Assembly: GCF_040954645.1 (NCBI RefSeq)
Contig: NC_092813.1
Location: 15,974,136-16,038,135, forward strand
Reading direction: 5' to 3'
Origin: Diabrotica undecimpunctata
Taxonomy: Eukaryota > Arthropoda > Insecta > Coleoptera > Chrysomelidae
Length of the DNA: 64,000 nucleotides
Both the position numbers and the translations under genes were made by a program. Shown in pieces: positions 32,914 to 53,919 of this stretch. How positions within the stretch are numbered: the stretch's first letter is position 1; the number at the start of each line of letters is the position of its first letter. The notes beneath the pieces were generated by a model, which saw only the letters and a list, made by a program, of their open reading frames with translations, was not told the origin of the DNA and did no database searches.

Positions 32914-33429
32914 AGTAAAAGGGCTAGGACAGTTGTGGCTATTTTCCCATGTTAAATCCCATAAGAAATCGCTAAGGTCCATTCTGCTCGTTTTTGGCTC
33001 ATTTCGTGGTGGGGGTAAAACAGCTCATCGGATCGCGACGTATGAGGTATTGTTGGAACCGTACGCGCAACGGGTTTCGCGCAGCTATGGGTAACACTGT
33101 TTTGGCTACGGGGTGGTGGTGGTAGGGCGAAGAAGTGGCGAGTGGGGCCGTCGAGGGGTGCGGGGGGACGGGGGTACTCGAGGTGTCGTCGATACATGAA
33201 AATAGCGTTAATTCTTTTTCTTTTGTGAAAAATCGTCCAAACGTGAAAATAGCGTGAATTCTTCTTCTTTTCGTATCGTTCAAACTTGAAAATAGCGTCA
33301 ATTCTTTTAAAGTGTAACAGGAGTTGTTGGAAAAAGGCGGCGTTGGCTCGGCGGATCGCGATGTATGACATGTCAAACGAACGGGAAGGGGACGGGGAAC
33401 ACGTAGAGAGAAAAAACAAAGATGGCGGC

Positions 33430-34460
33430 ATAGTCAAAACGACACTATAACGTATCGCCGGGTCTATTGGTCCGATTGCAACGTATGAGGCGTCAAACGA
33501 AAGGTGAGAGAATAACGAATACATCAAAATTAAAACATGAAACAAAATCAATGCCAAAACGACACTATAACGTATCTCCGGGTCTATTGGTCCGATTGCA
33601 ACGTATAAGGCGTCAAATGAAAGAGGAAGGGGTAATAAATACATGGAGATACAAAACAACAACGTATGAGGTATCAAACGAATATAATGTACAGCAGCGG
33701 CTATCGCCGGAAATGAAAAGAATGGGAATGTACAACATCGTGACATGTGAGGTATCGTTGGAAAGGGGAGGAGGTAACGAATATGTTAAAGCAAAAAAAA
33801 ACAAAGATGGCGGCATTGCCAAAAGGATACTAAGCTTGTAGCGTCTAAACGGCTTAACGTATAACAATGTGTAAGGTATCGATGGAAAGGGGAGGGACAA
33901 ACGAATACTTTAACATGAAAATAAAGATGACGTCATTGCCAAAAGGACACTAAGCTTGTAAAGCCTAAACAGCTCAACGAACAACAACGTGCAAGGTATC
34001 AATAGAATTGGGAGGTGGTAACGAATATGTTAAGACAAAAAAGCAAAAGCAAAGACAATGCCAAAACAGCACTATATCGTTTTTGTGTTGTTATTAGTCA
34101 GATTACTACTTGTAACACGTTAAATAAAAGAGGGGGGGATATCCAATACTTTTACACAAAAACAAAGACAAGACATTGCCAAAAAGGCACTACACCATAT
34201 CTTCGTTTCTATTGGTCCGATCTTCGCGAATGAGGGCTCGTTGGAAAGAGGAGAAGATATCAAAATATGTTATCATAAAAACAAAGACAAAGACATTGTC
34301 AAAATGGCACTATATCGGATTTTTGTTGCTATTGATCGAATTTTAGCATAATAGACGTTGAAGGAATGGAGAGTAGTCACTGAGGCTAACAGAGAAACAA
34401 ACATGACAACACTGAAAACGACGCTAAATCATATCTTTGTTGCTATTGGACCTATTTAGA
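33430..34460 (+). repeat. ~120-bp tandem repeats, left arm
   Basis: About nine diverged units, marked by the recurring core GCCAAAACGACACTATAACG followed by TCTATTGGTCCGATT, at 33435, 33554, 33816, 33937, 34060, 34177, 34296 and 34410, spaced 114-123 bp (one double gap). Related inverted units lie at 51990-53480, a 240-bp version in the centre and a stray dimer at 56780-57045. Confidence 0.8.
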
Positions 34461-34869
34461 AGGGGATTCCACGAACATTACAGTTCATCGAAATAATCGA
34501 CCAATGGTGGTATAGGAACATCCACAAGTAAACGCCTGAATGGTGACATGTCAACGCCCAATGATGACATGTAAACGCCCCAAACCGTGGTGTTACGTAT
34601 TCTCGTATCACCAGGCCCTAACCAATACGTACCCTCATGCACCACACCCCAACATGTATCGACCACTGATGACATAGGAACGGTAAGTAAACACCTGAAT
34701 GGTAACATGTAAACGCCTCTCAAAACAATGAGAATGAAGTCATGACCAAAGAGATTCCACCCCGAGGCGCGCAGTCGAGTGGGATAAAAGTCGACCTGAT
34801 AGAGGTTACATGATTGAATAAAACTCAGTATGTATCAAGCCTTCTAAGAAGTAAGATGGATAAATCAAG

Positions 34870-35247
34870 TTGTTCAGAGGTCCGAACGCAGTCAGAAAAA
34901 TAAAACGCTTAAATTTAGATGATATACTTATTGATCAATGGATGACAAACACAGAAATTACCTGCTATATCTTTTATATCAGCGAAGAACCAGTACCGTT
35001 TGTTCTATTATCAAAATGCACCTTTGATCCACTCAGACAGCGTGATGTACCAAGAGTATTAGATTACGTATATACATTACCTCATCATCGAAAAAGAGGA
35101 TACACATGCAAACTTATAGAACATGTAAAGAAAAATAACCAATTCACAGCATTTTGCTCCAACAAAGAATCGGAACGGTTGTTTGGTAAATGTAAATTTG
35201 TTAATCATGGAATAACGAATTATACTGTAATGTTTAGATATCCATAA
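34870..35247 (+). CDS. GNAT-like acetyltransferase, left-arm copy
   Basis: A 125-codon frame that resembles the GCN5-related N-acetyltransferase fold. Residues 55-85 give LDYVYTLPHHRKRGYTCKLI, with the acetyl-CoA loop pattern R-x-x-G-x-(A/T) (RKRGYT) following a strand, and residues 95-115 give AFCSNKESERLFGKCKFVNHG, matching the last motif where an Asn precedes an (L/Y)-(F)-x-K-x-(G)F segment. Substrate unknown. An in-frame TAA lies a few codons before 34870 and the first in-frame ATG is internal (residue 27), so the N-terminus is unresolved: splicing, a frameshift from the ATG at 34857 or a non-AUG start are possible. The stop codon overlaps an AATAAA signal (35246-35252). The near-identical copy at 51206-51583 supports selection or recent duplication. 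Confidence 0.6.
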   Translation: MFRGPNAVRKIKRLNLDDILIDQWMTNTEITCYIFYISEEPVPFVLLSKCTFDPLRQRDVPRVLDYVYTLPHHRKRGYTCKLIEHVKKNNQFTAFCSNKESERLFGKCKFVNHGITNYTVMFRYP

Positions 35248-37004
35248 TAAAATCGAAATAAACATATAAACAACATATCGTGCTTTATTTCTTCCACACT
35301 TATTTCAGTCTACCACACTGTACTCTATAATAACGGAATAGGTAATAGAATATAGAAAAACGTGATATTCTCAAAGGACATACGATGGGTATATCGCATC
35401 AGAATGACTAGAAAGTAATTCACAGGTAACCTATCGATGTTTAGCAATTTTAAACTTCGGACAACAACATGTAACGTACCCTAACTGTAAACGAACTGTA
35501 ACAGATATCTAACGCGATCGAACATATAGCAGACGTATACCTGACACTATCTAACGCATAGGAGATGTATAGCAGACGCGTTCTAACTCATATCAGACGT
35601 ATAACAGTTGTATACTAGACTCAAGATAGGACAGAACAATCGCTAAAGAAAATCTGTCGGAAAAAAAAACGAAATTTGTCAGAGTAAGAAATGAAAGAAT
35701 AGTAAGAAATTATGTGCGTTAATCAGAGAATAACGAAGGACATCGCAACTACACTGGTATGGACACGTCCACAAAATGGGCGACAACAAAATAACAAAAA
35801 AGTATTATATTGGACACAACAGGAAAGACGGAAATGTAGGTCATCAGCTACTATACATAAATATATAAATCTCATCTAAGCAGTCATTATAAGTATCCTC
35901 CGAATAGTAACTACTATACACAACTCACAAATACGATTATTGGTATGCGATAACGTTTTATTGCATAATATATTTTATCTACAACAATTACTATTTTACA
36001 ACGATATTCAGATATAATCCAATTATAACGAGGACTAAAAACGAATTTACCATTCTTCCAGTATGTTCAAACAACTAGCGAATATTACTCGACATAGAAA
36101 TGAGTTGGATGATCACAAACCGACAAGGACCTAAACGTTCTCTACAAGCCACTTCTGAACGACCACTACTATACACAAATCTCCACTGAACGTACAATTC
36201 GACAAGAGTCTCCGCTGAACACTCACTAATACACACAGATCTCATCTGAACGTATAATTAGTCAAGAGTCTTATCTACATAGCCACTATTATACATAAAT
36301 CTCCAAGATGACTATTTTTCGATTTGATGCATATTATATTTTATCTACATAATTACCATTTTACAATGATATTCAGATATAATCCAATTATGACGAAGAC
36401 TAACCAACGAATGATTACCATCCATAAATTATGTTCAAATAAACTAACGTGCCGAAAGACCATTACAATATATCTTCGTTGTTATTTATCCGATTTTGAC
36501 GTACAAGGCGTCAAATGAAAGGTGAAAGGAAAGCGTAAATATGTGCATACTATAGTTTATCTACGACGAGCAAGTAATTTATTGTTTTAAAGTGGATAAT
36601 GAACATATTGCGCTCTGTAAGAATATATGTTGGTCATAGACGGTTCTTCGATAGCCATCAGGCAACAATTTCCCCTGATCATGTTTATAAAACGTACGGA
36701 ATGCACTGTATATACCTTACCCTAGTTGACAGCGCACTTTGCAGGTCCCGTCTCACGATCAACTAATAGGTTTAAGTACAACTCCCTTCGTGAAGGTACA
36801 CAAGCGTGAATCCGTGCAGAAAAATGTCGACCATCCTTTTTATACTCCGGAAAGGACCATCAAATATTCAACGTTAAAATATTTCAGGTGTATTAACAAA
36901 GAAAAATTAAATTAAATACATTTTTAGAGTATATATAATTATAGAGTATATATAGTTTTAGAGTATATACTTTGGATGTGAAAATTGAAAGTAAATATAT
37001 TATG
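35248..37004. other. Left-arm non-coding region
   Basis: No convincing gene. A ~100-bp segment with TTCAGATATAATCCAATTAT is present twice (35970-36060 and 36330-36430). Repeats of an ACTACTATACACAAATCTCC type occur at 35900-36300. The block 36600-36850 (ending near CTTTTTATACTCC) is well conserved in the other arm at 49960-50230. It contains the short palindrome CCTTCGTGAAGG at 36788-36799. Confidence 0.5.
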
Positions 37005-37566
37005 TTAGATAAAAGAAAAACTCAGCCATCGAGTAAAGATATGACTACCACAATACGCTACGGTAACTCTAAGACAGAAATGATGTACATGAAATGATAG
37101 AAAAACATGTATAAAATATCTGATATAGAACCATGTAAGACAGAAAGCATGGACAATAATGATGGAAAATGTATAAAATATCCGACATAGAAACACATAA
37201 AAAATAAACGCTGTACATAAAATGATAGAAAATGTGTGAAATATCTGAAATACAAACACGTAAGGCAGAAAGCATGGACAATAATAATAAAAAATGTATA
37301 AAATATCTGACATAGAAACATGTAAGACAGAAAAGCTGTACATAAAATGATGGAAAATGTATAAAATATCTGACGTATAAACACGTAAGAAAGAAATGCT
37401 GTACATAAAAATGTATGAAATACCTGACATAGAAACACATAAGGCAGAAAGCATGGACAATAATGAATGAAAATGTATAAAATATATGACATAGAAATAC
37501 GAGAGGCAGAAAGCATGAATAATAATGATAGAAAATGTATAAAATTGCATGTTTTAAATAATACAT
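37005..37566 (-). repeat. ~61-bp minisatellite, left arm, open in three frames
   Basis: About eight units with the core GTATAAAATATCTGACATAG spaced close to 61 bp. On the minus strand the array is open in all three frames (165, 152 and 181 codons), each giving a Phe/Tyr/Ile/Cys-rich repetitive peptide. Because 61 is not divisible by three, one frame passes through all three registers of the unit. Inverted counterpart at 49258-49819. Whether any frame is translated is unknown; see the promoter at 37941-37975. Confidence 0.7.
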
Positions 37567-37940
37567 AAATTAATAAACAATATGAAAAAACCTGGAAAAA
37601 AATAATGGATAACAGATTTGGTATAAAACCAAAATTTTAAAATATTTTTTGTATGTCTCTATTTTTTTTAATCAACAATTACTTTATTATTTGTGAAATG
37701 CACTGTTCCATTTTAAAAACGAGAAAATTAAACAACATATTTACAAATAATATTGCATGTTTTAAATAATGCAGAAATAAATTACATACATAATGACAAA
37801 CTTAGAATGATGGTGTATAAAATTAAATACAAGCCCTCTAAAATATATAAAATAGTACATACTTTGTTTAAATTGTTTTACTTGTAGCACAAATTTTTTG
37901 TAACACAAAACGAACACGTTATTACAAAGGTGAACTGCAG

Positions 37941-37975
37941 ACTGAGTATAACAGAATGGATTCGTTCATTAAATA
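37941..37975 (-). promoter_or_regulatory. TATA/initiator promoter, left-arm copy
   Basis: On the minus strand TATTTAA (37969-37975) lies 32 bp before the A of TCAGT (37941-37945), the spacing of an arthropod TATA-initiator core promoter. It would start RNA 393 nt before the ATG at 37550 of the minisatellite frame. The CRE-like TTACGTCAT of the other copies is mutated here to TTACCTCAT. Confidence 0.55.
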
Positions 37976-38441
37976 GGCAGGCTGGTATGAGGTAACTCGA
38001 CTGGAAATTATCGAGAATTGCAAGCTAAAGCTTGTTTACACGTGCACCGGATATTCTCGACTGTGAAAACGCTGAATCGTGAGAGAATGTTAAAAAGGAA
38101 TGTAATAATATCCGCTAAAGTTCTCGTTAGCAGTATTTCGCATCATATTACGTCCAGCCGTATATGTATACCTATATGACTAACAAGCTGATTCTTGAAA
38201 AAAATTGTTGCACGTGTTTCCAACGACCGTGTGAGAAATGTTAAAAGGAAATGCACATCCGCTGGTTGGAATATTTATAAAGATTTATAAGTTTAATTAT
38301 ATAATATACGAAGTTACTCGCAAATTACTAGTAATATATAAATTGAAAAATCAACGAATTTTTGGTATTAGACTATTCGTTGTGGATAAAATATATACGA
38401 GGTTGATTAAAAGTTACTCGTAAAATATAAATTGAGAAAAT

Positions 38442-38902
38442 TTAAAAGTTCTTAGAAACACGTAAAAAAGAAATGTTGTATATAAAATGATAGAAAATGT
38501 ATAAAATATCTAACATAGAAACACGTAAGAAAGAAATGCTGTACATAAAAATGTATGAAATATCTGACATAGAAACACGTAAGAGAGAAAGCATGGACAA
38601 TAATGATGGAAAATGTATAAAATATCGAATAAAAATTGAGAAGTACTGGAAAGGATGATAAAAAATGTATAAAATATCTAACATAGAAACACGTAAGAAT
38701 GAAAGCATGGACAATAATAATGTAAAATGTAAAAAATATCTGACATAGGAACACGTAAGAAAGAAATGCTGTACATAAAATGACAGAAAATGTGTAAAAT
38801 ATCTGACATACAATCACGTAGGGCAGAATGCATGGACAATAATGATAGAAAATATATAAAATATAACTGCTGTACATAAGATGATATGCTTCGCGGCACC
38901 AC
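38442..38902 (-). repeat. ~61-bp minisatellite, second left-arm block
   Basis: About seven units of the same minisatellite as at 37005-37566, open in several minus-strand frames (up to 141 codons). Its inverted partner is 41795-42240. The palindrome ends inside this block at about 38886. Confidence 0.7.
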
Positions 38903-38959
38903 CTAACCTAATAAATTAACCATCGCTCAACCATCGCTAACTTTACTCCAGAGACGAAA

Positions 38960-39245
38960 TGACGCTTTACTCCTATGTTATCCATATGTAAGGTGTGACG
39001 TGTTGACTTTAAAACGTGACGTTTTTGACGTGATTTGTGAAGTTTTGACGTGACGCGTGATGTCTTCACGTAAAAATGTGGCGTTTATACATGATATGTG
39101 GCGGGTGACATTTTGATGTTAAAACGTGACGTTTGGACGCAAAAGTGACGTTTTGACGTGACGCGTGACACGAGTTAACCTAATAAATTACCTATCGAAA
39201 CTCTGTCTAAGTTTAATTACGTTGACATTTGTAGGGGGCGTGACG
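38960..39245. promoter_or_regulatory. Cluster of CRE-like TGACGT motifs
   Basis: At least seven TGACGT hexamers lie in about 250 bp. The longer string GTTTTGACGTGACGCGTGA occurs twice (about 39042-39060 and 39149-39167). TGACGT is the half-site bound by CREB/ATF-type bZIP factors. The density suggests an enhancer or replication-associated repeat; function is inferred. Confidence 0.5.
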
Positions 39246-39247
39246 TG

Positions 39248-39397
39248 GTAAAAGCGATGAAAAACTGTCGCTTTTCATCGTTTTACGTACTTGTTGATCC
39301 CATATAGAGACATGTAAAATCATTGATAAATAGAAATTTTTTAAAAATGTTAAAAAACCATGTAAAAGATGAAAAGTGATCGCTTTTCATCGCTTTT
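39248..39397. repeat. Two related imperfect palindromes
   Basis: Palindrome 1 (39248-39286) has arms GTAAAAGCGATGAAAA and TTTTCATCGTTTTAC around a short centre. Palindrome 2 (39362-39397) has arms AAAAGATGAAAAG and CTTTTCATCGCTTTT. Both share the GATGAAAA/TTTTCATC core. They resemble the ~30-bp palindromes of baculovirus homologous regions in form, although not in any sequence I can confirm. Confidence 0.6.
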
Positions 39398-39420
39398 TCA
39401 ACGCTTAATTATCACTTTAT

Positions 39421-40560
39421 TTTATACTCAGTCATAGGTCTTCTTCGACTCAATAAATTAAAATTTTTCTTATAGGATAAATCTATTACCATCATTAGTA
39501 GCCTATTATATAACGTATTTCACTATAATTTTATTATTATTAAAAATGGTGTATCGGGCCCTTTTATTAGTGGTCATGTTTTGTTTTTCTATCATAATAT
39601 ATTTGTTAGCTCTTCCCCTTTCATTTGATGTGTCACATGTTAGGTTTCGACTGGATGTTTGTTTTAGTGTGTCAGACGCCTTCTTTAGGTCAATAAATGT
39701 AAGTTGATATTATACTGTGTCTATTATCGTCCATAGCATCATATTGTATGACGTATGTCACTATAAGTTCATTAATAGCAAAGATAGTGTATAGAGCCTT
39801 TTTAGTGTTCAATATGTTTTGTTTTTCTATCTTAGTATATTCGTTAAATCTTCCCCTTTCATTTAATGTGTCATATGTTAGGATTCGACTGGCTGTTTGT
39901 TTTTTACTGCATCAGACGCCTTCCTTAGGTCAATAAATACAAATTTACTTTATAGTGTTTCTATTATCGTACATAGTATCATATGATGTCACATATGTCA
40001 CTATACTGTCATTAATATCAAAGATAGTGTATAGTGCCTTTTTTAGTATTCATTATGTTTTGTTTATCTATCTTAGCATATTCGTTAAATTTTCCTCTTT
40101 CATTTGATGTGTCACATGTTAGGATTCGACTGGTTCTTTGTTTTTTCTGTGTCAGACGCCTTCTTTAGGTCAATAAATACCAATTTACCTTATAGTGTGT
40201 CTATTGCCGTCCATTGTATTATATGATGTCACATATGTCGCTATACTTTCATGAATAATCAATATAGTATGTAGCGCTCTTTTAGCAGTCTCCATATCTA
40301 TTTTTATATCTCAACATATTCATAATATCATCGTACTTTCCTTGGATGTGTCGTATGTATGGATTCGGTGGTTTGTTTATTTAATGCTTAGTCTGAGGCC
40401 TTCTTTATATCAATAAATTAACATGTATATTACAGCATATATAATAATATTAGTGTCATATATCTCGTATGTTACTATATATTCATTAATAACGCTAAAA
40501 TTAGTTTTACTTCATAATTTTTAATTACCCCCGGTATAATTACTAATAAAAGTTTTCATA
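39421..40560 (+). repeat. 240-bp tandem repeat, 4-5 units
   Basis: The landmark GACGCCTTCTTTAGGTCAATAAAT recurs at 39435, 39675, 39915, 40155 and 40395, exactly every 240 bp. A second landmark, CCTTTCATTTGATGTGTCA, sits between. The unit appears to be a diverged dimer of the ~120-bp repeat of the arms, because the TTTCATTTGA-GYC segment also occurs there. Confidence 0.85.
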
Positions 40561-40616
40561 TATCATAATAATTCCTTGAAATATTATATTATAAAGAAAA
40601 TCTGTTGTTTGCTATC

Positions 40617-40756
40617 TGACGTCACCGGATGTAATTGAATTCCAATCACTATTTTCGTTCTCACATCTTCGGCTTGCAATTCTCGGTAATTTCCAGTCGA
40701 GTTACGTCATGCCAGCCTGCCTATTTAATGAACGAATACATTTTTATACTTGCAGT
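40617..40756 (+). promoter_or_regulatory. TATA/initiator promoter with CRE sites, central copy
   Basis: A perfect CRE palindrome TGACGTCA lies at 40618-40625 and a CRE-like TTACGTCAT at 40702-40710. TATTTAA at 40722-40728 precedes the A of GCAGT (40752-40756) by 32 bp, the correct arthropod spacing. Transcription would run rightward toward the minisatellite frame at 41518-42261. The block is about 85-90% identical to the right-arm copy. Confidence 0.55.
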
Positions 40757-40909
40757 GTGCAGTTAACCTTTGTGATAGCGTGTTCGTTTGGTGTTTGTGC
40801 TACAAATAAAAATTAAAAAGTGGATACTATTTTATATATTTTAGAGGGCTCGCATTTGATTTTTTACACCATCATTCTAAGTTTGTCATATTGTTAATTT
40901 ATTTCAGCA

Positions 40910-41089
40910 TTATTTAAAACATGCAATATTATTTGTCAATATGTTTAATTTTCTCGTATTACGTTTAAAATTCTCACTCTTTTGCTGAATAATATTTTTG
41001 TACACACCATATTTTGTTAAAAATATTGTTGTTAAGTGTTCCCGCAGGTATTCTATTAGAACATGTTCTTCGTATTTACAATAGGCCAT
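40910..41089 (-). CDS. Hypothetical 59-residue protein in the palindrome centre
   Basis: No family recognised. The frame starts at ATG 41089 and encodes a mostly charged peptide (MAYCKYEEHVLIEYLREHL at the N-terminus, basic in the second half). A minus-strand TATAGTA (around 41125-41131) lies 32 bp before the A of TCAGT (41097-41101), so a core promoter sits about 10 nt ahead of the ATG. That coincidence is the main argument for a real gene. Its 3' end overlaps the promoter-like repeat block. Confidence 0.35.
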   Translation of the reverse strand: MAYCKYEEHVLIEYLREHLTTIFLTKYGVYKNIIQQKSENFKRNTRKLNILTNNIACFK

Positions 41090-41164
41090 TTCAACAACTG
41101 AGTTATAAACAAACAAAAAACAAATACTATAAACATTACTTTTATTTATATCCTAGCATCTGTA

Positions 41165-41365: not shown

Positions 41366-41489
41366 TGTTGGCAATTGAATAATATGTTAGACCCTGCTGG
41401 TTTCGACATATAATTATTCTCTATTCAGCAAATTTTACATGTAAATCGTTCATTATTACCCATGCTTTCTGCCTTAAGTGTTTCTATGC

Positions 41490-44591: not shown

Positions 44592-45866
44592 TTAGTCACT
44601 ATGTATCTCCAAAGGCACTCCAAATCGGCTGATATATTCTTGGATCAACTTATCTGCAACGGTGGCGGCCTTCTGGTCGGGAAGTGCGTAAATCTCGGCC
44701 CACTTAGTAAAGTAATCCATTACTACCAACATGTACTTGCCTTCATTTTCACTTTCTGGAAATGGCCCAGCGATGTCCAAAGCTATTCTTTCAAACGGGC
44801 TTCCAACATTATATTGTCTCATAGGAGCTCTCCTTTTTCGGTAAGGCCCGTTACTCGTGGCACAAATAGTACATTTTTTACACCAGTTTTTTACATCGTC
44901 GGAACTGTTCATCCAATAAAACCGTTCCCGAATTCGCTGAAGGGTTTTCTTTACACCAAAATGCCCTCCCGATGGACTGTCGTGTAACTGACGAAGTACT
45001 TCGGCTATTCTGCTCTTTGGGATCACCAACTGTCTTCTCTTCTCTGAACCGTCATCATTTTCCAGGACTCGTTTGAGCAAGCCATCTTCGATGATAAATG
45101 AGTCCCACTGGGCCCAATACGTCTTATCTACTGAGCATAGGTTTGATATTTCCTGCCAAGGCGGTCGACGGTTTTCCTCTTTCCATTTTCGGATTTTCTG
45201 TATAACTGGATCTCTCTCTTGTTCTTCCCTTATTTTAGTAGGCGTCCAGTCGTCGTTGACAATCGTCGTTCTTAGCACTGCTGCTTCCTTGGATTCCGTT
45301 TTGTTGCAGTAGGAACACTCTGCTGGGCATGGCCTTTTGGAAAGAGAATCAGCGTTTCTATGGCTAACTCCGGCCAGGTGCTCAATCTTAAAATCGTATT
45401 CTTGGAGTCGTTCGATCCACCTGGCTATCTGACCCTCTGGATTCTTAAACTGCATCAACCACTTAAGGGCGGCATGGTCGGTTCGGATTAGAAACTTTCT
45501 GCCATAGAGGCATTGATAGAAGTGCTCTACTGATTTCACTACTGCCAGAAGTTCTCTTCTCGTGACGCAATAATTCCGTTCAGGTTTTGAAAGAACTTTA
45601 CTAAAATATCCGAGAACTCGTTCCTGTCCTCCTTGAATCTGAGACAGCACTCCTTCAATTCCCACATTACTTGCATCCGTATCTAAGATGAACTCTCCTT
45701 CTGGCAGTGGATACCCTAAAATTGGTGCTGTTATTAAATGCTTTTTTAAGGTCTCAAAGGCATTTTGGCAGTCTGTATCCCAGCGGTATTCTCTTGCTTC
45801 CTCTGTAAGTCGCGTTAATGGCTTAGCGATATCTGCAAACTTCTTAATAAACCTCCGGTAGTACAT
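44592..45866 (-). CDS. RNase H and integrase (zinc domain and start of core)
   Basis: 424 codons. RNase H at residues 40-150: FILDTDASNVGIEGVLSQ, YCVTRRELLAVVKSVEHF, IRTDHAALKWL, HRNADSLSKRP. Integrase zinc module at about 285-335: LHDSPSGGHFGVKKTL with the two His and WCKKCTIC with the two Cys. The catalytic core starts at about 355 with IALDIAGPFPE (first Asp) and ends at the second Asp (EIHSD). The next codon is TAA, in place of an expected sense codon, so integrase is cut in its core. The sequence continues in frame toward 44313. Confidence 0.9.
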   Translation of the reverse strand: MYYRRFIKKFADIAKPLTRLTEEAREYRWDTDCQNAFETLKKHLITAPILGYPLPEGEFILDTDASNVGIEGVLSQIQGGQERVLGYFSKVLSKPERNYCVTRRELLAVVKSVEHFYQCLYGRKFLIRTDHAALKWLMQFKNPEGQIARWIERLQEYDFKIEHLAGVSHRNADSLSKRPCPAECSYCNKTESKEAAVLRTTIVNDDWTPTKIREEQERDPVIQKIRKWKEENRRPPWQEISNLCSVDKTYWAQWDSFIIEDGLLKRVLENDDGSEKRRQLVIPKSRIAEVLRQLHDSPSGGHFGVKKTLQRIRERFYWMNSSDDVKNWCKKCTICATSNGPYRKRRAPMRQYNVGSPFERIALDIAGPFPESENEGKYMLVVMDYFTKWAEIYALPDQKAATVADKLIQEYISRFGVPLEIHSD

Positions 45867-46888
45867 AGTCCAAGAAAACTTCTCACTTGATGTTTGTCAG
45901 TTGGTTTTGGCCATTCCTTAATGGAATCGATTTTTCCCTTATCCACAGCCACTCCTTCTTTACTGACTATATGACCCAGATAATTGACTTTACCTTGAAA
46001 TAGCTGGCACTTCTTGGGGTTTAGCATCAATTGGGCAGCTTTAAGTCGATTAAAAACGTTTTCTAAATTCTTCAGATGTTCTTCGAATGTCTCCCCCAAG
46101 ACGATTATGTCATCTAAATAAACCAGGCATGTTTTCCAAGATAACCCTCTCAACACATTTTCTATAAGCCTCTCAAATGTCGCAGGAGCATTACAGAGTC
46201 CAAATGGCATAACGTTGAATTGCCACAATCCAGATCCTGTGGTGAAGGCTGTCTTTTCTTTATCTACTGGGTCCATTTCTACCTGCCAGTATCCAGACTT
46301 CAAATCCAAAGTAGAAAATAATTTACTTCTAGCCAATGTGTCCAATGTGTCATCGATCCGAGGCAGAGGATAACTATCATTCTTGGTAACGTTGTTCAGC
46401 AAACGGTAATCCACACAGAACCTCGTCGTTTCGTCTTTCTTCTTAACCAGGACCACCGGAGAGACCCATGTGCTCGTAGAAGGTTCTATCACCCCGTCTT
46501 TCTTCATTTCCTGAACAATCGTTTCAGCCTCCTCTCTTTTCGCCTGTGGTAATCGTCGAGCTGTTTGACGAATTGGCTTAGCATTACCAGTATCAATTTT
46601 ATGCTTAACAACGGTAGTTCTTTCCGTCTTTCCTCCTTTCGGTACGAAAATATCACGATACTGCCGAAGAAATTCCCTTAATTTCCTTTTCTCCATCTGA
46701 TTTAGAGACTGTCCTGCAACTGCAACCATTTGGTCGAATTTGTCGTTGGCATTATCAGATGTTGTCGCCTGACGGATTATGGATGTCACAGGTACACAAG
46801 TTCCTACCTTTGTCTCTTTCTTGATGGTCACTGGGTAGTCATTGACATTGATAAGCCTCACAGGAATTTCCTTAGCCAAAGTCACCAA
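45815..46888 (-). CDS. Reverse transcriptase of the macrodomain Gypsy element
   Basis: A 357-codon frame beginning in the -1 register relative to gag-protease. Landmarks: HKIDTGNAKPIRQTARRLP, EPSTSTWVSPVVLVKKKD, FCVDYRLLNNVT, FSTLDLKSGYWQV, MPFGLCNAPATFERL and the catalytic VYLDDIIV, followed by YLGHIVSKEGV and RSFLGLC. Just after FLGLC a frameshift (near 45865) sends the reading out of register; the following domain continues in the frame 44592-45866. Confidence 0.9.
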   Translation of the reverse strand: MVTLAKEIPVRLINVNDYPVTIKKETKVGTCVPVTSIIRQATTSDNANDKFDQMVAVAGQSLNQMEKRKLREFLRQYRDIFVPKGGKTERTTVVKHKIDTGNAKPIRQTARRLPQAKREEAETIVQEMKKDGVIEPSTSTWVSPVVLVKKKDETTRFCVDYRLLNNVTKNDSYPLPRIDDTLDTLARSKLFSTLDLKSGYWQVEMDPVDKEKTAFTTGSGLWQFNVMPFGLCNAPATFERLIENVLRGLSWKTCLVYLDDIIVLGETFEEHLKNLENVFNRLKAAQLMLNPKKCQLFQGKVNYLGHIVSKEGVAVDKGKIDSIKEWPKPTDKHQVRSFLGLCTTGGLLRSLQISLSH

Positions 46889-48174
46889 TTCCTTTCCACG
46901 GCCATTATGATTCCACGGCCAACCTCATCGTCGTGGTTCCAAGGCTCCATCATAACAGGTCTCCCTTCGTCCACAATTCCCTGTAGCCGCGCTACTATGA
47001 TCGTTTCGCTTCTCGCAGGCACGACTGTATCTTCTTTAATGGCTGCTTGCACAGTGTTGTCATTATGTGGATGGAGAAATACTTCCTCGTTGCCAACTTT
47101 GATTACCTTATTCTTAAAATCCAATTGGAATCCATGCATATTCATTACGTCCATTCCTAATATAACATCCTCTTCGATGTCAGCAACTATAACAGTATGG
47201 ACAAACTTTTCTGCTCCAATTCCCAATTGTACCTGGATTTCTCCATGAATGTTGGCATTTTCACCTGTAGCGGTCCGAAGTCGCAACCTCGTTGGTAACA
47301 GTTTCTTTCGGCTGTTTATAACTGTCGGGCGTATAATGGTTCTGGTCGCTCCGGTATCCACCAACAACGTATGTCTTTTACCATTTATTTCTCCATCTAC
47401 ATATACACTATCTTCACGACATTTCAAAGAAGCTATTAGTATAAGAGGGTCTTTGGAAAAGTTCCGGGTCGAAGCTGCTCCCCTAAAGCCGACTCGTTCT
47501 GGTTTTCCTGATGGTGAGTTTCTTGATTTTATGGTCTTCGTTTTCTTGCATGTACTAATTTTCATCATATTAACGAGCTGGTCAAGTTTATCTTCATCTC
47601 CTTTCTCTTTTACAGTCCTAACTTTACTGTATCCTCCAGAGGCCTGCGTAGCTGACTCGTATTCGAGGGCGGCGGATAAGACATCAACCAGCGTCTTGTG
47701 ACGAGCTAATCGTAGTGTTCTCTGCATTTCATGATCACGAAGACCATCAATAAACGTTTGAACGGCCAACTTTTCCATCATATCTTCGGGAGCTGTTGGA
47801 TAAGCATATCGTACCAATCTGGCAATATCTACCTCATATTCTTGAAGAGCCTCATCTTTCTTTTGTCTTCGATTTTTAAGCTGCGACTGATATACATGTT
47901 CCAAATGTTCGTGGCCATATCGCATATTTAACCTCTTCTTCAGTTGTTCGAAATCATCGGTCTCCTCTACGGCTATGGTCTGAAGCACATCTAAGGTATC
48001 TCCTCGAAGAGCGATAGTCAGGTTTACAGCCTCTTCTTTTTCAGACCATCCATTCGCTATTGCAGCTGATTCGAACTGTTTCATGTAGTTATTCCATGAC
48101 GATTTTCCGTCGAAAGTTGGGACCTTCACATGGGCAGAACCTCCACTTCCTTCAAATTTCGGCCGTATTTCCAA
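46882..48174 (-). CDS. Gag capsid region and aspartic protease
   Basis: 430 codons in the same frame as the SAP-coiled-coil part, with no ATG at the start (first codon TTG after the TAG). Residues 15-170 look like a Ty3/Gypsy capsid (VPTFDGKSSWNNYMKQFESA, ALRGDTLDVL, RLARHKTLVDVLSAALEYE). A nucleocapsid zinc knuckle is not evident; instead there is a basic KKTKTIKSRNSPSGK patch near 215. The protease lies at about 250-350, with catalytic LLVDTGATRTII and the flap-side VILGMDVM segment. It ends at 46882 where the polymerase frame overlaps by a few bases in the -1 register, suggesting programmed frameshifting. Confidence 0.85.
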   Translation of the reverse strand: MEIRPKFEGSGGSAHVKVPTFDGKSSWNNYMKQFESAAIANGWSEKEEAVNLTIALRGDTLDVLQTIAVEETDDFEQLKKRLNMRYGHEHLEHVYQSQLKNRRQKKDEALQEYEVDIARLVRYAYPTAPEDMMEKLAVQTFIDGLRDHEMQRTLRLARHKTLVDVLSAALEYESATQASGGYSKVRTVKEKGDEDKLDQLVNMMKISTCKKTKTIKSRNSPSGKPERVGFRGAASTRNFSKDPLILIASLKCREDSVYVDGEINGKRHTLLVDTGATRTIIRPTVINSRKKLLPTRLRLRTATGENANIHGEIQVQLGIGAEKFVHTVIVADIEEDVILGMDVMNMHGFQLDFKNKVIKVGNEEVFLHPHNDNTVQAAIKEDTVVPARSETIIVARLQGIVDEGRPVMMEPWNHDDEVGRGIIMAVERNW

Positions 48175-48675
48175 CTAACATTTCGTCTCGTCTTCTTTTA
48201 TCTCCACTGTAATCGGATTGTTACCTCTCTCTGCTGTCCCTGTTTCCTTAATCTTCCTTTCCATCTCTTTAATCTTTTCTTCGAAGGCCAACATATCGGC
48301 AGCAACTTGATTTTTTAACGAAGACATTCTATCGTCCAGGGCAGACATCTCAGAAGTGACTTTAGAGATTTCCGAAGAGATGTTAGCAGAAACTTTGCTT
48401 TCCAGAGAAGAAATCTCGTTAGAAACTTTGTTCTCCAATGATGCGATGTCACCAGAAACTTTCGAAATGTCACCAGAAACTTTCGCAATCGACGAGATAA
48501 CAGCAACATGCTTGTCTTCAAATATATAAGTTTCCGGATTCAAACCTTCTTCTTTTAAAGCGTTCTTTAGTCGTTGGACTAAATCAGCCTTTTTCTTGGT
48601 AGAAGCTAATTCCCTATCTTCAAGATGCCTTCTTAAATCCGTAACTGTGAGCTCATAAATCGTAGTCATTTTCAC
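48175..48675 (-). pseudogene. Gag N-terminal region: SAP domain and coiled coil
   Basis: A 166-codon frame starts near the 5' LTR. Residues 7-41 (ELTVTDLRRHLEDRELASTK and KKADLVQRLKNAL) match the SAP motif, a helix-extended loop-helix usually binding AT-rich DNA or chromatin. Residues 58-150 form a long coiled coil with ISKVSGDI and SSLESKV repeats. A single TAG follows, after which the frame continues without shift into the capsid-like part at 46882-48174. So this is either Gag with a recent stop or a protein made by stop-codon readthrough. Confidence 0.7.
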
Positions 48676-48723
48676 AATTTATAAATATTCACTTGTATTA
48701 TTATTATAAGTCTAATTTATGTT

Positions 48724-48743
48724 CGATCCAACTTCTAACACCA
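48724..48743 (-). promoter_or_regulatory. Primer-binding site of the macrodomain Gypsy element
   Basis: The minus strand reads TGGTGTTAGAAGTTGGATCG two bases inside the 5' LTR. It starts with TGG, complementary to a tRNA CCA end. The sequence is of the type assigned to tRNA-Leu in some insect Gypsy elements, but this was not verified. Confidence 0.7.
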
Positions 48744-48745
48744 TT

Positions 48746-49083
48746 TGTTGTGAATTTATTAAAAGGTTCAATATTTATAACACTTATGGATTTAATTTAT
48801 TTTTTATTTATATTAACTTATCTGACAATAATTTATATATATCCGTACGTAACAATTAAATTCGCGAGCGCGTTCAGAATTAACTGTCTGCTTCAATGAA
48901 AAATCCATTAATATATATGAAGCCACAACTGGCCTAGAATTCTCTGATTTATACTAGAAGGTCATCGTCTGACCGGTTTTCTATTCTGCCAGCAGGTAGA
49001 ATCATCTCGTATAATCTACAACATATTAGAATTAGTCATCATATATTTACAGTTATTTTTAGGCCAGGATATTTATCGTAACA
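48746..49083 (-). repeat. 5' LTR of the macrodomain Gypsy element
   Basis: 338 bp, near-identical to 42939-43278. The transcript would start in this LTR and read leftward. Confidence 0.95.
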
Positions 49084-49257
49084 ATATGTTGTTTAATTTT
49101 CTCGTTTTTAAAATGGAACAGTGCATTTCACAAATAATAAAGTAATTGTTGATTAAAAAAAATAGAGACATACAAAAAATGTTTTAAAATTTTGGTTTTA
49201 TACCAAATCTGTTATCCATTATTTTTTTCCAGGTTTTTTTATATTGTTTATTAATTT

Positions 49258-49819
49258 ATGTATTATTTAAAACATGCAATTTTATACATTTTCTATCATT
49301 ATTATCCATGCTTTCTGCCTTACGTGTTTCTATGTTATATGTTTTATACATTTTCATTCATTATTGTCCATGCTTTCTGCCTTATGTGTTTCTATGTCAG
49401 GTATTTCATACATTTTTATGTACAGCATTTCTTTCTTACGTGTTTCTACGTCGTATATTTTATACATTTTCCATCATTTTATGTACAGCTTTTCTGTCTT
49501 ACATGTTTCTATGTCAGATATTTTATACATTTTCTATCATTATTGTCCATGCTTTCTGCCTTACGTGTTTGTATTTCAGATATTTCACACATTTTCTATC
49601 ATATTATGTACAGCGTTTATTTTTTATGTGTTTCTATGTCGGATATTTTATACATTTTCCATCATTATTGTCCATGCTTTCTGTCTTACATGGTTCTATA
49701 TCAGATATTTTATACATGTTTTTCTATCATTTCATGTACATCATTTCTGTCTTAGAGTTATCGTAGCGTATTGTGGTAGTCATATCTTTACTCGATGGCT
49801 GAGTTTTTCTTTTATCTAA
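49258..49819 (+). repeat. ~61-bp minisatellite, right arm, open in three frames
   Basis: Inverted counterpart of 37005-37566. It is again open in all three plus-strand frames (165, 181 and 152 codons), with the same lengths as in the left arm, so no stop has arisen in any register of either copy. Confidence 0.7.
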
Positions 49820-51205
49820 CATAATATATTTACTTTCAATTTTCACATCCAAAGTATATACTCTAAAACTATATATACTCTATAATTATATTTATTTTAA
49901 TTTTTCTTTGTTAATATACCTGAAATATTAACGTTAAATATTTGATGGTCCTTTACGGAGTATAAAAAGGATGGTCGACATTTTCCAGCACGGATTCACG
50001 CTTGTGTACCTTCACGAAGGGAGTTGTACTTAAACTCATTAGTTGATCGTGAGACGGGACCTGCAAAGTGCGCTGTCAACTAGGGTTAGGTATATACAGT
50101 GCATTCCGTATGTTTTATAAACATGACCAGGGGAAATTGTTGCCTGATGGCTATCGAAGAACCGTCTATGACCAACATATATTCTTACAGAGAGCAATGT
50201 TCATTATCCACTTTAAAACAATAAATTACTTGCTCGTCGTAGATAAACTATAGTATGCACATATTTACGCTTTCCTTTCACCTTTCATTTAACGCCTTGT
50301 ACGTCAAAATCGGATAACTAACAACGAAGATATATTGTAATGGTCTTTCGGCACGTTAGTTTGTTTGAACATAATTGGATGGTAATCATTCGTTGGTTAG
50401 TCTTTGGAAGAATGGGAAATTCGTTTTTAGTCTTCGTTATAATTGGATTATATCTGAATATCGTTGTAAAATAGTAATTGTTGTAGATAAAATATAATAT
50501 GCAATAAAACGTTATCGCATACCAATAATCGTATTTGTGAGTTGTGTATAGTAGTTACTATTCGGAGGATACTCGTAATGACTGCTTAGATGAGATTTAT
50601 ATATTTATGTATAGTAGCTGATGACCTACATTTCCGTCTTTCCTGTTGTGTCCAATATAATACTTTTTTGTTATTTTGGTGTCGCCCATTTTGTGGACGT
50701 GTCCATACCCGTGACGTTGCGATGTCCTTCGTTATTCTCTGATTAACGACCATAATTTCTTACGATTCTTTCATTTCTTACTCTGACAAATTTCGTTTTT
50801 TTTTCGACAGATTTTCTTTAGCGATTGTTCTGTCCTATCTGGAGTCTAGTATACAACTGTTATACGTCTGATATGAGTTAGAACGCGTCTGCTATACATC
50901 TCATATGCGTTAGATAGTGTCAGGTATACGTCTGCTATATGTTCGATCGCGTTAGATATCTGTTACAGTTAGGGTACGTTACATGTTGTTGTCGGAAGTT
51001 TAAAATTGCTAAACATCGATAGGTTACCTGTGAATTATTTTCTAGTCATTCTGATGCGATATACCCATTGTATGGCCTTTGAGAATATCACGTTTTTCTA
51101 TATTCTATTACCTATTCCGTTATTACAGAGTACAGTGTGGTAGACTGAGATAAGTGTGGAAGAAATAAAGCACGATATGTTGTTTATATGTTTATTTCGA
51201 TTTTA
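49820..51205. other. Right-arm non-coding region
   Basis: Inverted match of 35248-37004. Includes the conserved block 49960-50230 and the CCTTCACGAAGG palindrome near 50010-50021. No gene seen. Confidence 0.5.
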
Positions 51206-51583
51206 TTATGGATGTCTATACATTACAGTATAATTCGTTATTCCATGATTAACACATTTACATTTACCAAACAACCGTTCCGATTCTTTGTTGGAGCAAA
51301 ATGCTGTGAATTGGTTATTTTTCTTTACATGTTCTATAAGTTTGCATGCGTATCCTCTTTTTCGATGATGAGGTAATGTATATACGTAATCTAATATTCT
51401 TGGTACATCACGCTGTCTGAGTGGATCAAAGGTGCATTTTGATAATAGAACAAACGGTACTGGTTCTTCGCTGATATAAAAGATATAGCAGGTAATTTCT
51501 GTGTTTGTCATCCATTGATCAATAAGTATGTCATCTAAATTTAAGCGTTTTATTTTTCTGACTGCGTTCGGACCTCTGAACAA
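51206..51583 (-). CDS. GNAT-like acetyltransferase, right-arm copy
   Basis: The inverted counterpart of 34870-35247, also 125 codons. It differs at only a few residues (V to I before LDYVY, T to A after RKRGY, F to C in the final motif, and two at the C-terminus). The Ala in RKRGYA fits the GNAT acetyl-CoA loop better than the Thr of the left copy. The upstream in-frame stop and the AATAAA overlapping the stop codon are retained. Both copies are transcribed toward the centre of the palindrome. Same reservations on start codon as for the left copy. Confidence 0.6.
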   Translation of the reverse strand: MFRGPNAVRKIKRLNLDDILIDQWMTNTEITCYIFYISEEPVPFVLLSKCTFDPLRQRDVPRILDYVYTLPHHRKRGYACKLIEHVKKNNQFTAFCSNKESERLFGKCKCVNHGITNYTVMYRHP

Positions 51584-51989
51584 CTTGATTTATCCATCTT
51601 ACTTCTTAGAAGGCTTGATACATACTGAGTTTTATTCAATCATGTAACCTCTATCAGGTCGACTTTTATCCCACACGACTGCGCGCCTCGGGGTGGAATC
51701 TCTTTGGTCATGACTTCATTCTCATTGTGTTGAGGGGCATTTACATGTTACCATTCAGGTGTTTACTTACCGTTCCTATGTCATCAGTGGTCGATACATG
51801 TTGGGGTGTGGTGCATGAGGGTGCGTATTGGTTAGGGCCTGGTGATACGAGAATACGTAACACCACGGTTTGGGGCGTTTACATGTCATCATTGGGCGTT
51901 GACATGTCACCATTCAGGCGTTTACTTGTGGATGTTCCTATACCACCATTGGTCGATTGTTTCGATGAACTGTAATGTACGTGGAATCC

Positions 51990-53480
51990 CCTTCTAAATA
52001 GGTCCAATAGCAACAAAGATATGATTTAGCGTCGTTTTCACAGTGTTGTCATGTTTGTTTCTCTGTTAGCCTCAGTGACTACTCTCCATTCCTTCAACGT
52101 CTATTATGCTAAAATTCGATCAATAGCAACAAAGATCCGATATAGTGCCATTTTGACAATGTCTTTGTCTTTGTTTTTATGATAACATATTTTGATATCT
52201 TCTCCTCTTTCCAACGAGCCCTCATTCGCGAAGATCGGACCAATAGAAACGAAGATATGGTGTAGTGCCTTTTTGGCAATGTCTTGTCTTTGTTTTTGTG
52301 TAAAAGTATTGGATATCCCCTCCTCTTTTATTTAACGTGTTACACGTAGTAATCTGACTAATAACAACACAGAAACGATATAGTGCTGTTTTGACATTGT
52401 CTTTGCGTTTGCTTTTTTGTCTTAACATATTCGTTCTTCTTCTCGTGCCACTCCTAGCGGAGATTGGAAATCATCCTGGCCACTGCGACTTTGTTAGCAG
52501 CGCGCCTAAAAAGTTCAATCGAACTACACCCGAACCATTCACGTAGATTACGAAGCCACGATATTTTTCTTCTTCCCACACTTCTTTTGCCCTTAATTTT
52601 GCCCTAAATGATATTTCTTAAAAGTTCGTACTTTTCACCTCTCACAATGTGTCCCAAGTATTCCATCTTTCTAGTTTTTATCTCATTTAGAATTTCGCAT
52701 CTTTTGTCTAAAGTTTGGAGTACTTGCGTGTTAGTGACGCGGTCCATCCATGATATTCTGAGAATGCGCCTATAGCCATATTCGTTACCACCTCCCAATT
52801 CTATTGATACCTTGCACGTTGTTGTACGTTGAGCTGTTTAGGCTTTACAAGCTTAGTGTCCTTTTGGCAATGACGTCATCTTTATTTTCGTGTTAAAGTA
52901 TTCGTTTGCCCCTCTCCTTTCCATCGATACCTTACACATTGTTATACGTTGAGCCGTTTAGACGCTACAAGCTTAGTATCCTTTTGACAATGCCGCCATC
53001 TTTGTTTTTGTTTTTTGCTTCAACGTATTCGTTACCTCCTCCCCTTTCCATCAATACCATGCACATTGTTGAACGTTGATTCGTTTAGACATTACAAGCT
53101 TAGTATCCTTTTGGCAATGACGCCGTCTTTGTTTTTTTTTTGCTTTAACATATTCGTTACCTCCTCCCCTTTCCAACGATACCTCACACGTCACGATGTT
53201 GTACATTCCTATTCTTTTCATTTCCGGCGATAGCCGCTGCTGTACGTTATATTCATTTGATACCTCATACGTAGTAATCGGGCCAATAGACCCTGAGATA
53301 CGTTATAGTGCCGTTTTGGCATTGATTTTGTTGCTTGTTTTTTATCTCCATGTATTCATTGCCCCTTCCTTTTTCATTTGACGCCTTATACGTTGCAATC
53401 GGACCAATAGACCCGGAGATACGTTATAGTGTCGTTTTGGCATTGATTTTGTTTCATTTGAAGCGTCATACGTCGCGATC
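51990..53480 (-). repeat. ~120-bp tandem repeats, right arm
   Basis: Inverted counterpart of 33430-34460, with one or more extra units around 52860-53150 and 53270-53330, for example repeated CTTTTGGCAATG and GGACCAATAGACCC-GAGATACG segments. Unit number therefore differs between the arms. Confidence 0.8.
52436..52776 (-). mobile_element. 5'-truncated LINE fragment inserted in the right arm
   Basis: A 341-bp insertion absent from the left arm, flanked by the 10-bp direct repeat CATATTCGTT (52426-52435 and 52777-52786). The minus strand translates into the C-terminus of a LINE polyprotein (ILRISWMDRVTNTQVL, MEYLGHIVRGEKYELL) and ends in a short GAA repeat next to the left duplication, as expected of a LINE 3' end. 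The left arm around 34015-34030 shows the empty site. Confidence 0.85.
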
Positions 53481-53919
53481 CGCCGAGCCAACGCCCCCTT
53501 TTTCCAACAACTCCTGTTACACTTTAAAAGAATTGACGCTATTTTCAAGTTTGAACGATACGAAAAGAAGAAGAATTCACGCTATCTTCACGTTTGGACG
53601 ATTTTCATAAAAGAAGAAGAATTAACGCTATTTTCATGTATCGACGACACCTCGAGTACCCCCGTCCCCCCGCACCCCTCGACGGCCCCACTCGCCCCTC
53701 CTTCGCCTTACCACCACCACCCCGTAGCCAAAACAGTGTTACCCATAGCTGCGCGAAACCCGTTGCGCGTACGGTTTCAACAATACCTCATACGTCGCGA
53801 TCCGATGAGCTGTTTTACCCCCACCACGAAATGAGCCAAAAACGAGCAGAATGGACCTTAGCGATTTCTTATGGGATTTAACATGGGAAAATAGCCAGAA
53901 CTGTCCTAGCCCCTTTACT

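What the first reader, a model, noticed from the sequence alone, without database searches (positions are those of the whole stretch)
32914..53919. A 21-kb palindromic element with ~6-kb inverted arms inserted in a satellite array
Seen in sequence: the 5'-AGTAAA... end, its inverted match at the far side, arms that are near-identical inverted copies, and the 6-bp repeat CATCTA on both sides; deleting the element restores the satellite unit TTTCCATCTAAAAC. It contains GNAT-like ORFs and arrays of repeats but no recognisable transposase or polymerase. Known: 6-bp duplications and 5'-AG ends occur in Polintons, whereas Foldback-type elements make 9-bp duplications. Inference: an undescribed giant inverted-repeat transposon, or a derivative of a Polinton or integrated DNA virus that lost its core genes.
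Basis: partly seen in the sequence, partly recalled or inferred. Interest (0 to 1): 0.9.

Follow-up and report, generated by a model that had tools for sequence, protein, structure and literature searches.

The report
Palindromic transposon family with viral-type polymerase
This is one copy of a mobile DNA family in a leaf beetle whose members include giant mirror-image sequences related to elements that carry a virus-like DNA polymerase, which suggests that they copy themselves by folding back on themselves.

Summary
Correction: the right arm carries a later Ty3/gypsy retrotransposon (42939-49083); without it the element is about 14.9 kb. The host is very probably Diabrotica undecimpunctata.

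It belongs to a large family. 24 of 26 end pairs examined have perfect 6-bp duplications, at 19 different targets. GNAT genes form 34 inward-facing pairs within 35 kb and no outward-facing one. Relatives with similar ends and the same 120-bp repeats are 16-17 kb elements carrying one GNAT and one family-B DNA polymerase (46% identical to an adintovirus PolB). A second palindrome class has PolB in both arms (9 pairs among 38 scored copies, all outward-facing), some near-perfect with a 10- or 81-bp loop. Some palindromes of both classes share an apex motif. In 4 of 4 PolB palindromes read, the two arms match each other best; PolB is under purifying selection.

Best explanation: one-ended, fold-back palindromic derivatives of a Polinton/adintovirus-related element, with arms remade at replication and integrated in trans. 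No integrase or capsid gene was recognised, so it is filed as Polinton-related, not as a Polinton.

The parts
32908..32913 (.). left target-site duplication CATCTA
53920..53925 (.). right target-site duplication CATCTA
32914..38886 (+). left arm of the palindrome (about 6.0 kb)
49084..53919 (-). right arm, outer part; inverted copy of 32914-37735 (97.1%)
41794..42937 (-). right arm, inner part; inverted copy of 37725-38886 (98.1%)
32914..32932 (+). left terminus AGTAAAAGGGCTAGGACAG; 125 sites within 2 mismatches in the assembly against 17 in the control
53901..53919 (-). right terminus AGTAAAGGGGCTAGGACAG
33436..34459 (+). subterminal array of ~120-bp iterons, 9 matches; a tenth lies at 36456-36548
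51993..53438 (-). subterminal array of the same iterons, inverted, 10 matches; an eleventh lies at 50255-50347
39590..40130 (-). diverged iterons in the central 240-bp tandem array (5 matches)
34864..35247 (+). GNAT-like reading frame, left arm; opens after the place where the relatives start, so no start codon there (probably inactive)
51206..51589 (-). GNAT-like reading frame, right arm (96% identical protein; 5 nonsynonymous and 1 synonymous difference from the left copy)
38887..41793 (.). central unpaired segment
38889..38917 (+). apex motif CTTCGCGGCACCACCTAACCTAATAAATT directly at the inner end of the left arm; the same motif lies at the centre of some PolB palindromes
42939..49083 (-). 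nested Ty3/gypsy LTR retrotransposon, a later insertion, not part of the palindrome; LTRs 42939-43278 and 48745-49083, TSD ATAT
30309..32913 (+). flanking satellite array, left
53920..56274 (+). flanking satellite array, right, same orientation

Best explanation
The element is a non-autonomous, palindromic copy of a mobile element family related to Polintons/adintoviruses. Shown: the family has full-length members (16-17 kb, about 1.6-kb terminal repeats, one GNAT gene at one end and one family-B DNA polymerase gene at the other) and two palindromic classes, each a mirror duplication of one end: GNAT-end palindromes (this copy) and PolB-end palindromes. They share AGTAAA... ends, 120-bp subterminal iterons and 6-bp target duplications, and some palindromes of both classes share one apex sequence. 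Inferred: during protein-primed strand-displacement replication a displaced strand folds back at an inverted sequence near the middle and is copied round, so one half of the element becomes both arms. Such a palindrome has a replication end at each side, can be copied by PolB, and has its arms made identical at each round. It is then integrated with a 6-bp stagger by a Polinton-type integrase acting in trans. After insertion the arms drift; here a gypsy element then landed in one arm, and the left arm probably lost about 2.9 kb next to the apex.
For: Perfect 6-bp duplications, never 7, in 24 of 26 end pairs (window, 18 pairs L009-L044, 4 pairs, 3 short elements), at 19 different targets. Flanks are not mirrored in 21 of the 22 genome pairs compared (100-bp ungapped identity 0.21-0.41; the exception is C1:86809908) nor in the window (0.40). 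GNAT: 117 copies; among 40 neighbour relations within 35 kb, 34 inward, 0 outward, 6 same-strand. PolB: 38 scored copies, 9 outward pairs, 0 inward; a second PolB lineage in the same genome shows no inverted pair among 36 scored copies. Six places have one GNAT and one PolB on the same strand; two were read in full. Near-perfect palindromes: C1:24566873-24584331, 17,459 bp, arms 99.9%, 10-bp loop; C8:48.55 Mb, no mismatch in 3214 bp on each side of an 81-bp loop. No inner termini in the four PolB palindromes read. PolB identity within palindromes 98.7-100% vs 93.7-97.3% between them, 4 of 4. PolB dN/dS 0.09-0.23, also between two palindromes. Apex motif: 68 sites, control 0; 22 inside GNAT or PolB pairs (expected 0.03), 10-12 bp from the midpoint in three PolB palindromes.
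Against: No integrase was recognised in the two full-length copies read, so the integration step is unproven. The apex motif (within 3 mismatches) is in 14 of 34 GNAT pairs and 6 of 11 PolB pairs, so not universal; C8:48.55 Mb has another apex. The two full-length copies are 17-19% away from the palindromes in PolB nucleotide sequence and lack the apex 10-mer; a one-PolB copy closer to the palindromes (C1:98530697, 90-94%) lacks it too and has no GNAT match. So a full-length parent with GNAT, PolB and apex was not seen, although C10:4138959 has a 75-bp stretch of the apex region. Beyond GNAT the window arm had no match to the C5 full-length copy at the cut-off used. 40 of 68 apex sites have no known GNAT or PolB copy within 15 kb, though only part of the PolB copies was scored. 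Ends read AGTAAA, not the doubled AGTAGT of vertebrate Mavericks. High arm identity could also come from gene conversion after insertion.
Confidence: 0.62

Rival explanations
1. A conventional foldback DNA transposon: long inverted repeats built of tandem repeats, moved by a cut-and-paste transposase (Mutator or P type) supplied elsewhere. The PolB copies would then be captured cargo.
For: Long inverted arms with tandem repeats, no own transposase, and short derivatives with the same ends, as described for Tetris.
Against: 6-bp duplications in 24 of 26 pairs, against 8-10 bp for Tetris (PMC4079207 passages). PolB is under purifying selection. No transposase match among the frames scanned in the two full-length copies.
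Confidence: 0.12
2. The palindromes are composites: two elements in opposite orientation fused by recombination, then moved as one unit from the outer ends.
For: Both arms carry the same gene in mirror orientation.
Against: No inner termini within 3 mismatches in the four PolB palindromes read. Some arms end at the same short apex. Four of 11 PolB pairs span almost the same length, 13.86-13.95 kb. Arms within a copy are each other's closest relatives in 4 of 4.
Confidence: 0.1
3. Chromosomal palindromes: inverted duplications made by host break repair or by hairpin-capped replication errors at short inverted repeats, unrelated to the element's own polymerase.
For: Host replication can make hairpin-capped inverted copies (title and abstract start of PMC10766183 in the listing). 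One locus, C1:86809908-86831222, has flanks that are inverted copies too.
Against: At 21 of 22 genome pairs the mirror symmetry does not go on into the flanks, and 20 of the 22 have a 6-bp duplication, so the palindromes among them existed before insertion. A second PolB lineage in the same genome shows no inverted pair in 36 scored copies.
Confidence: 0.08
4. Assembly artefact: false palindromes from reads with missed adapters or from merged haplotypes.
For: Perfect palindromes are a known kind of assembly error (recalled); C1:86809908 looks like one.
Against: Unmirrored flanks at 21 of 22 genome pairs and a 6-bp duplication at 20 of 22. In the window the arms differ by 147 substitutions and only one carries a gypsy element. 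The satellite runs in the same direction on both sides.
Confidence: 0.04

Closest known systems
Polinton/Maverick elements and adintoviruses
   Same: Family-B DNA polymerase (PF03175, E 2.8e-16 on a 326-aa piece; 46% identity to Megastigmus wasp adintovirus PolB over 99% of the query); 6-bp TSD; inverted repeats starting AGT (PMC8097293, section 7 and passages); 16-17 kb full length.
   Different: No integrase, capsid, ATPase or protease recognised in two full-length copies; palindromes with 6-8.7 kb arms against inverted repeats of 46-1447 bp; AGTAAA instead of AGTAGT or AGAGAG.
Foldback elements (Tetris; Galileo and FB recalled)
   Same: Long inverted repeats built of tandem repeats, middle domain, non-autonomous copies.
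   Different: 6-bp rather than 8-10-bp duplications; linked to a DNA polymerase instead of a transposase (passages of PMC4079207).
Subgenomic molecules of the protein-primed phage phi29
   Same: Shortened molecules arising mainly from one genome end, linked to polymerase template switching (passages of PMC4974454). That some are palindromic is my recollection, not read.
   Different: Those are molecules seen during infection; here the palindromes are integrated, numerous, and their PolB is under selection.
Bidnaviruses and related segmented PolB viruses
   Same: PolB related to that of adintoviruses and a genome divided into segments with terminal inverted repeats (Vesanto virus passages of PMC8363768).
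   Different: No capsid gene recognised; the candidate segments here are palindromes integrated in the host; no particles known.

Membership tests
[quoted passage not shown]
   Not in the window copy; met in full-length relatives and PolB palindromes with the same ends. Protein priming itself was not tested.
Polinton/Maverick | 6-bp target-site duplication | tested here: met
   24 of 26 pairs
Polinton/Maverick | terminal inverted repeats with the doubled end motif (AGT)2 or (AG)3 | tested here: inconclusive
   ends AGTAAA, only the first triplet agrees
Polinton/Maverick | retroviral-type integrase | tested here: not met
   no integrase match among the Pfam-scanned reading frames of two full-length copies; in L081 from 2200 on, all frames of 45 aa or more were listed and read by eye, not all scanned. 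The gypsy integrase in the window is nested and later.
Polinton/Maverick | capsid proteins, packaging ATPase, protease | tested here: not met
   no Pfam match in the scanned frames
Adintoviridae | PolB of the adintovirus group | tested here: met
   P0106, PolB of Megastigmus wasp adintovirus, 46% identity, 99% coverage; no tree was made
Adintoviridae | integrase, capsid, protease and FtsK-like ATPase genes | tested here: not met
   gene list from PMC8363768 passages
Foldback element (Mutator/P type) | 8-10-bp target-site duplication | tested here: not met
   6 bp and not 7 in 24 of 26 pairs
Foldback element (Mutator/P type) | long inverted repeats made of tandem repeats around a middle domain | tested here: met
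Bidnavirus-like segmented virus | packaged single-stranded segments in particles | not testable with these tools
   no particle or extrachromosomal data

The most novel reading that the evidence does not exclude
A divided, self-mirroring mobile genome: the PolB palindrome, the GNAT palindrome and possibly gene-poor palindromes are separate 'segments' that share termini, iterons and an apex hairpin. Each replicates as a hairpin or palindrome from protein-primed ends, and its two arms are rewritten to identity at every round. The PolB segment would supply replication for all and a foreign Polinton integrase would supply insertion.
Probability: 0.27. Interest if true: 0.95.

Novelty: new variant of a known kind. 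Interest (0 to 1): 0.82.

Why it matters
Polintons are considered ancestors of most eukaryotic double-stranded DNA viruses (abstract start of PMC7805220, listing), but how they replicate has largely to be inferred. Integrated palindromes with 99.9-100% identical arms, defined apices and target duplications look like frozen replication products. Dozens of copies of different age in one genome make a fold-back (template-switch) model directly testable by sequence and by looking for extrachromosomal palindromes. If the arms are remade at each round, arm divergence is a clock for each insertion. The family also shows that large perfect palindromes, normally unstable, can spread as transposons.

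Tried and rejected
Terminus scan of viral contigs: 0 hits. GNAT alignment against viral and prokaryote contigs: 155 and 29 pattern matches, none confirmed. AlphaFold model of the window GNAT: mean pLDDT 35.6, useless, so no fold search was made. PDB sequence searches: 25 matches for GNAT, best E 0.59, none convincing; 0 for PolB. Rfam: none. PHROGs: weak acetyltransferase matches only. PF03175 gave no match on the whole 1233-aa PolB although a 326-aa PolB piece of another copy matched at 2.8e-16; I attribute this to the program's filters and rely on the homolog list as well. Guessing the ends of six further full-length copies by offset: only L071/L072 and L075/L076 gave ends with a 6-bp TSD, four did not show both ends; these 6 are not in the count of 26. 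C5:76000541 has no TSD and C1:86809908 has inverted flanks; both are counted as misses. The 18 pairs L009-L044 were chosen by eye from the listed places, which lists only part of the 125. The 26 pairs include full-length and short elements, not palindromes only. GNAT and PolB counts are lower bounds (159 candidates, 150 scored; 2137 candidates, 38 scored; 1727 candidates, 36 scored). A seventh intact GNAT, C11:23136858, has no scored PolB partner. Two of the 11 PolB pairs used (C5:76.0 Mb, C2:89.5 Mb) come from sequence read, not. Third-class palindromes: ends not reached. A capsid-family search of the genome (accession recalled) never ran, the machine being busy. Literature on palindromic Polintons: none recognised in the listings (titles and abstract starts seen); 'palindrom' has 0 occurrences in PMC8097293 and PMC6431247. 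This is a library of open papers only.
Full report
What was checked. The terminus occurs twice in the window within 3 mismatches, the two element ends, against 0.16 expected by shuffling. Arm identity is 97.1% (4224 of 4349 aligned bases) for the outer piece and 98.1% (1122 of 1144) for the inner piece, with 15 and 2 gap events. Deleting the element restores a satellite monomer apart from about 11 extra bases on the right. The satellite has the same direction on both sides.

Positions 42939-49083 are a Ty3/gypsy retrotransposon on the minus strand: Retrotrans_gag, gag-asp_proteas, RVT_1, RT_RNaseH and Integrase_H2C2, LTRs 333 of 338 identical, duplication ATAT (read). It sits in one arm only, so the two arms are distinct DNA. 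The LTRs differ by 1.5% and the arms by about 2-3%, which suggests that the palindrome is older. Without the insert the element is about 14.9 kb: two arms of about 6.0 kb and a 2.9-kb centre.

Host. The GNAT frame found only two relatives (E up to 0.01, 3 candidates, a search limited to shared short words), both Diabrotica (74% and 72% identity). Four contig lengths of the assembly (81904310, 33851832, 135379683, 2246460) equal those given for Diabrotica undecimpunctata proteins; two others differ by 1-3 kb (162782489 against 162785928, 160216187 against 160217234). So the species is very probable, perhaps in another assembly version. The window is G000:C11:15974136-16038135.

Family. The terminus pattern has 125 sites within 2 mismatches in 1.74 Gb, against 17 for the reversed control. 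I read the ends of 18 facing pairs chosen from the list: 16 have a perfect 6-bp duplication; the two misses are C5:76000541 (none) and C1:86809908 (flanks are inverted copies of each other). Four further pairs, three short elements of 0.4-3 kb and the window all have one. That is 24 of 26, at 19 different targets, and 6 rather than 7 bp each time. Mirror symmetry does not go on into the flanks at 21 of the 22 genome pairs (100 bp, ungapped identity 0.21-0.41; 1.00 at C1:86809908). Six copies, the window included, share the satellite target CATCTA/TAGATG with the same flank, so they are probably one insertion amplified with its satellite on C11 (and C53).

GNAT palindromes. 136 GNAT matches merge to 117 copies. 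Of 40 neighbour relations under 35 kb, 34 are inward-facing, none outward-facing, 6 same-strand. The window is one of the 34. 49 copies are in no such pair.

Full-length members. C5:71909647-71926541 and C4:108872106-108888920 were read in full, each as two separate pieces. In the C4 copy the terminal repeat is 1556 bp (99.2%); its ends read AGTAAAAGGGCAACAAGAG, a sister of the window's ends, whereas the C5 copy has the window's own 19-base end. Both have one GNAT (149-aa frame with a methionine), a frame with a weak PP1c-binding match (24.2 and 24.3 bits, cut-off 26.1), frames related to DUF8207 proteins (homologs P0124, P0125; split in the C5 copy) and one PolB frame (1298 aa in C4, 1233 aa in C5). 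Six places have one GNAT and one PolB on the same strand 7.6-8.3 kb apart. No integrase, capsid, ATPase or protease was recognised. A further one-PolB copy, C1:98530697-98546408 (15.7 kb, TSD CCTGAT), is closer to the palindromes (PolB 90-94%) but has no GNAT match. PolB: 742 proteins at E of 1e-10 or better among 4893 candidates; the named ones in the 120 listed are insects, apart from one filed under a Rickettsia endosymbiont of a weevil and PolB of Megastigmus wasp adintovirus (46%, 99% coverage). PF03175 matched at 2.8e-16 on a 326-aa piece but not on the whole protein.

PolB palindromes. Of 38 scored PolB copies, 18 form 9 outward-facing pairs; none are inward-facing. The second PolB lineage of the same genome (P0092 type) has no inverted pair in 36 scored copies (one same-strand pair; Fisher p 6e-7). 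Four PolB palindromes were read; none has inner termini. C1:24566873-24584331 is 17,459 bp, 99.9% symmetric, 10-bp loop; the centre of C8:48.55 Mb is symmetric without mismatch for 3214 bp on each side of an 81-bp loop. A 2.98-kb element at C7:70727159 is itself a 97% palindrome.

Arms match their partner best: PolB identity within the four palindromes 100.0, 98.7, 99.5 and 99.4%, between palindromes 93.7-97.3%, to the two full-length copies 81-83%. PolB dN/dS is 0.09-0.11 between lineages, 0.20 between full-length copies and 0.23 between two palindromes. GNAT is 0.32-0.39 between subfamilies; the two window copies differ by 5 nonsynonymous and 1 synonymous change, as expected of sequence drifting after insertion, though the number is small. 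This fits a cycle in which the arms are made identical at replication and diverge after insertion; gene conversion is the alternative.

Apex. The inner end of the window's left arm (38886) is followed at once by CTTCGCGGCACCACCTAACC...; the same motif lies 10-12 bp from the midpoint of the gene pair in the C1, C3 and C15 PolB palindromes (the C1 centre was read; C3 and C15 by position). Genome-wide there are 68 sites within 3 mismatches and 0 in the control; 22 lie inside GNAT or PolB pairs (expected 0.03), in 14 of 34 GNAT pairs and 6 of 11 PolB pairs; in the GNAT pairs the offset from the midpoint ranges from 86 bp to 5.9 kb (4.3 kb in the window, which has a gypsy insert). 40 sites have no known GNAT or PolB within 15 kb. 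Four of these were looked at: two (C7:28.13 Mb, C1:117.59 Mb) are centres of large palindromes without GNAT or PolB in the stretch read, one (C4:82.70 Mb) matches PolB-palindrome inner sequence, one (C2:112.0 Mb) is related to the first two with partial symmetry. The C7 case is symmetric over practically all of the 14.9 kb fetched; no family-type end was reached, so its membership is open.

Iterons. One ~120-bp repeat, 28 matches in the window (26 in the element, 2 at 56778-56974), is found in 22 of 22 pieces tested; those near an element end read inward.

Mechanism. Shown: mirror duplication of either end of a PolB-bearing element, symmetry ending at the insertion boundary, an apex shared by part of the copies, arm renewal or conversion, selection on PolB. 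Inferred: fold-back of a displaced strand during protein-primed replication, by analogy with template switching in phi29 (passages of PMC4974454), and integration in trans. The unpaired 2.9 kb in the window is best read as what is left of the right arm after a one-sided loss in the left arm next to the apex; this was not tested.

Comparison. Vertebrate Mavericks: 6-bp TSD, ends (AGT)2 or (AG)3, inverted repeats 46-1447 bp, intact elements 12.7-24.6 kb (PMC8097293, section 7 and passages). Foldback Tetris: 8-10-bp TSD (PMC4079207 passages). The adintovirus gene set includes integrase, capsid, protease and FtsK (PMC8363768 passages). The family works like a Polinton-related replicon but fails the integrase and capsid criteria in the copies read. 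I found no report of palindromic Polintons in searches (listings seen).

Noticed in passing
assembly contig C11 (33.9 Mb), which holds the window: 36 of 117 GNAT copies lie on 1.9% of the assembly, several in a satellite with the same target; perhaps a sex or otherwise special chromosome.
   Followed up: partly
assembly C1:86809908-86831222 (L039, L040): The flanks of this palindrome are exact inverted copies of each other over the 100 bp compared: a larger inverted duplication or a false palindrome.
   Followed up: no
L093, L094, L096, L097 (C7:28.13 Mb, C1:117.59 Mb): Very large near-perfect palindromes (97.7-99.9%) centred on the apex motif but without GNAT or PolB in the stretch read.
   Followed up: partly
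L081:2626-2952: Small frame with a weak match to the PP1-binding family PF10488 (24.2 bits, cut-off 26.1), next to GNAT in full-length copies.
   Followed up: no
assembly, P0092-type PolB copies: A second PolB lineage with at least 36 copies at 97-100% protein identity to the query, apparently young, not in mirror pairs among those scored.
   Followed up: partly
window 56778-56974: Two degenerate copies of the 120-bp iteron outside the element, beyond the satellite: probably a remnant of another copy.
   Followed up: no
window 23931-29018, minus strand: Non-LTR retrotransposon with two long open frames (1231 aa with endonuclease, RT and RNase H matches; 462 aa without a match).
   Followed up: no
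window 57575-59052, minus strand: Pieces of a piggyBac-type transposase (DDE_Tnp_1_7).
   Followed up: no
window 11391-11708 and 22826-23221: Fragments of a DDE_3 (Tc1/mariner-like) transposase and of a DUF659 protein (33.4 bits, just below cut-off).
   Followed up: no
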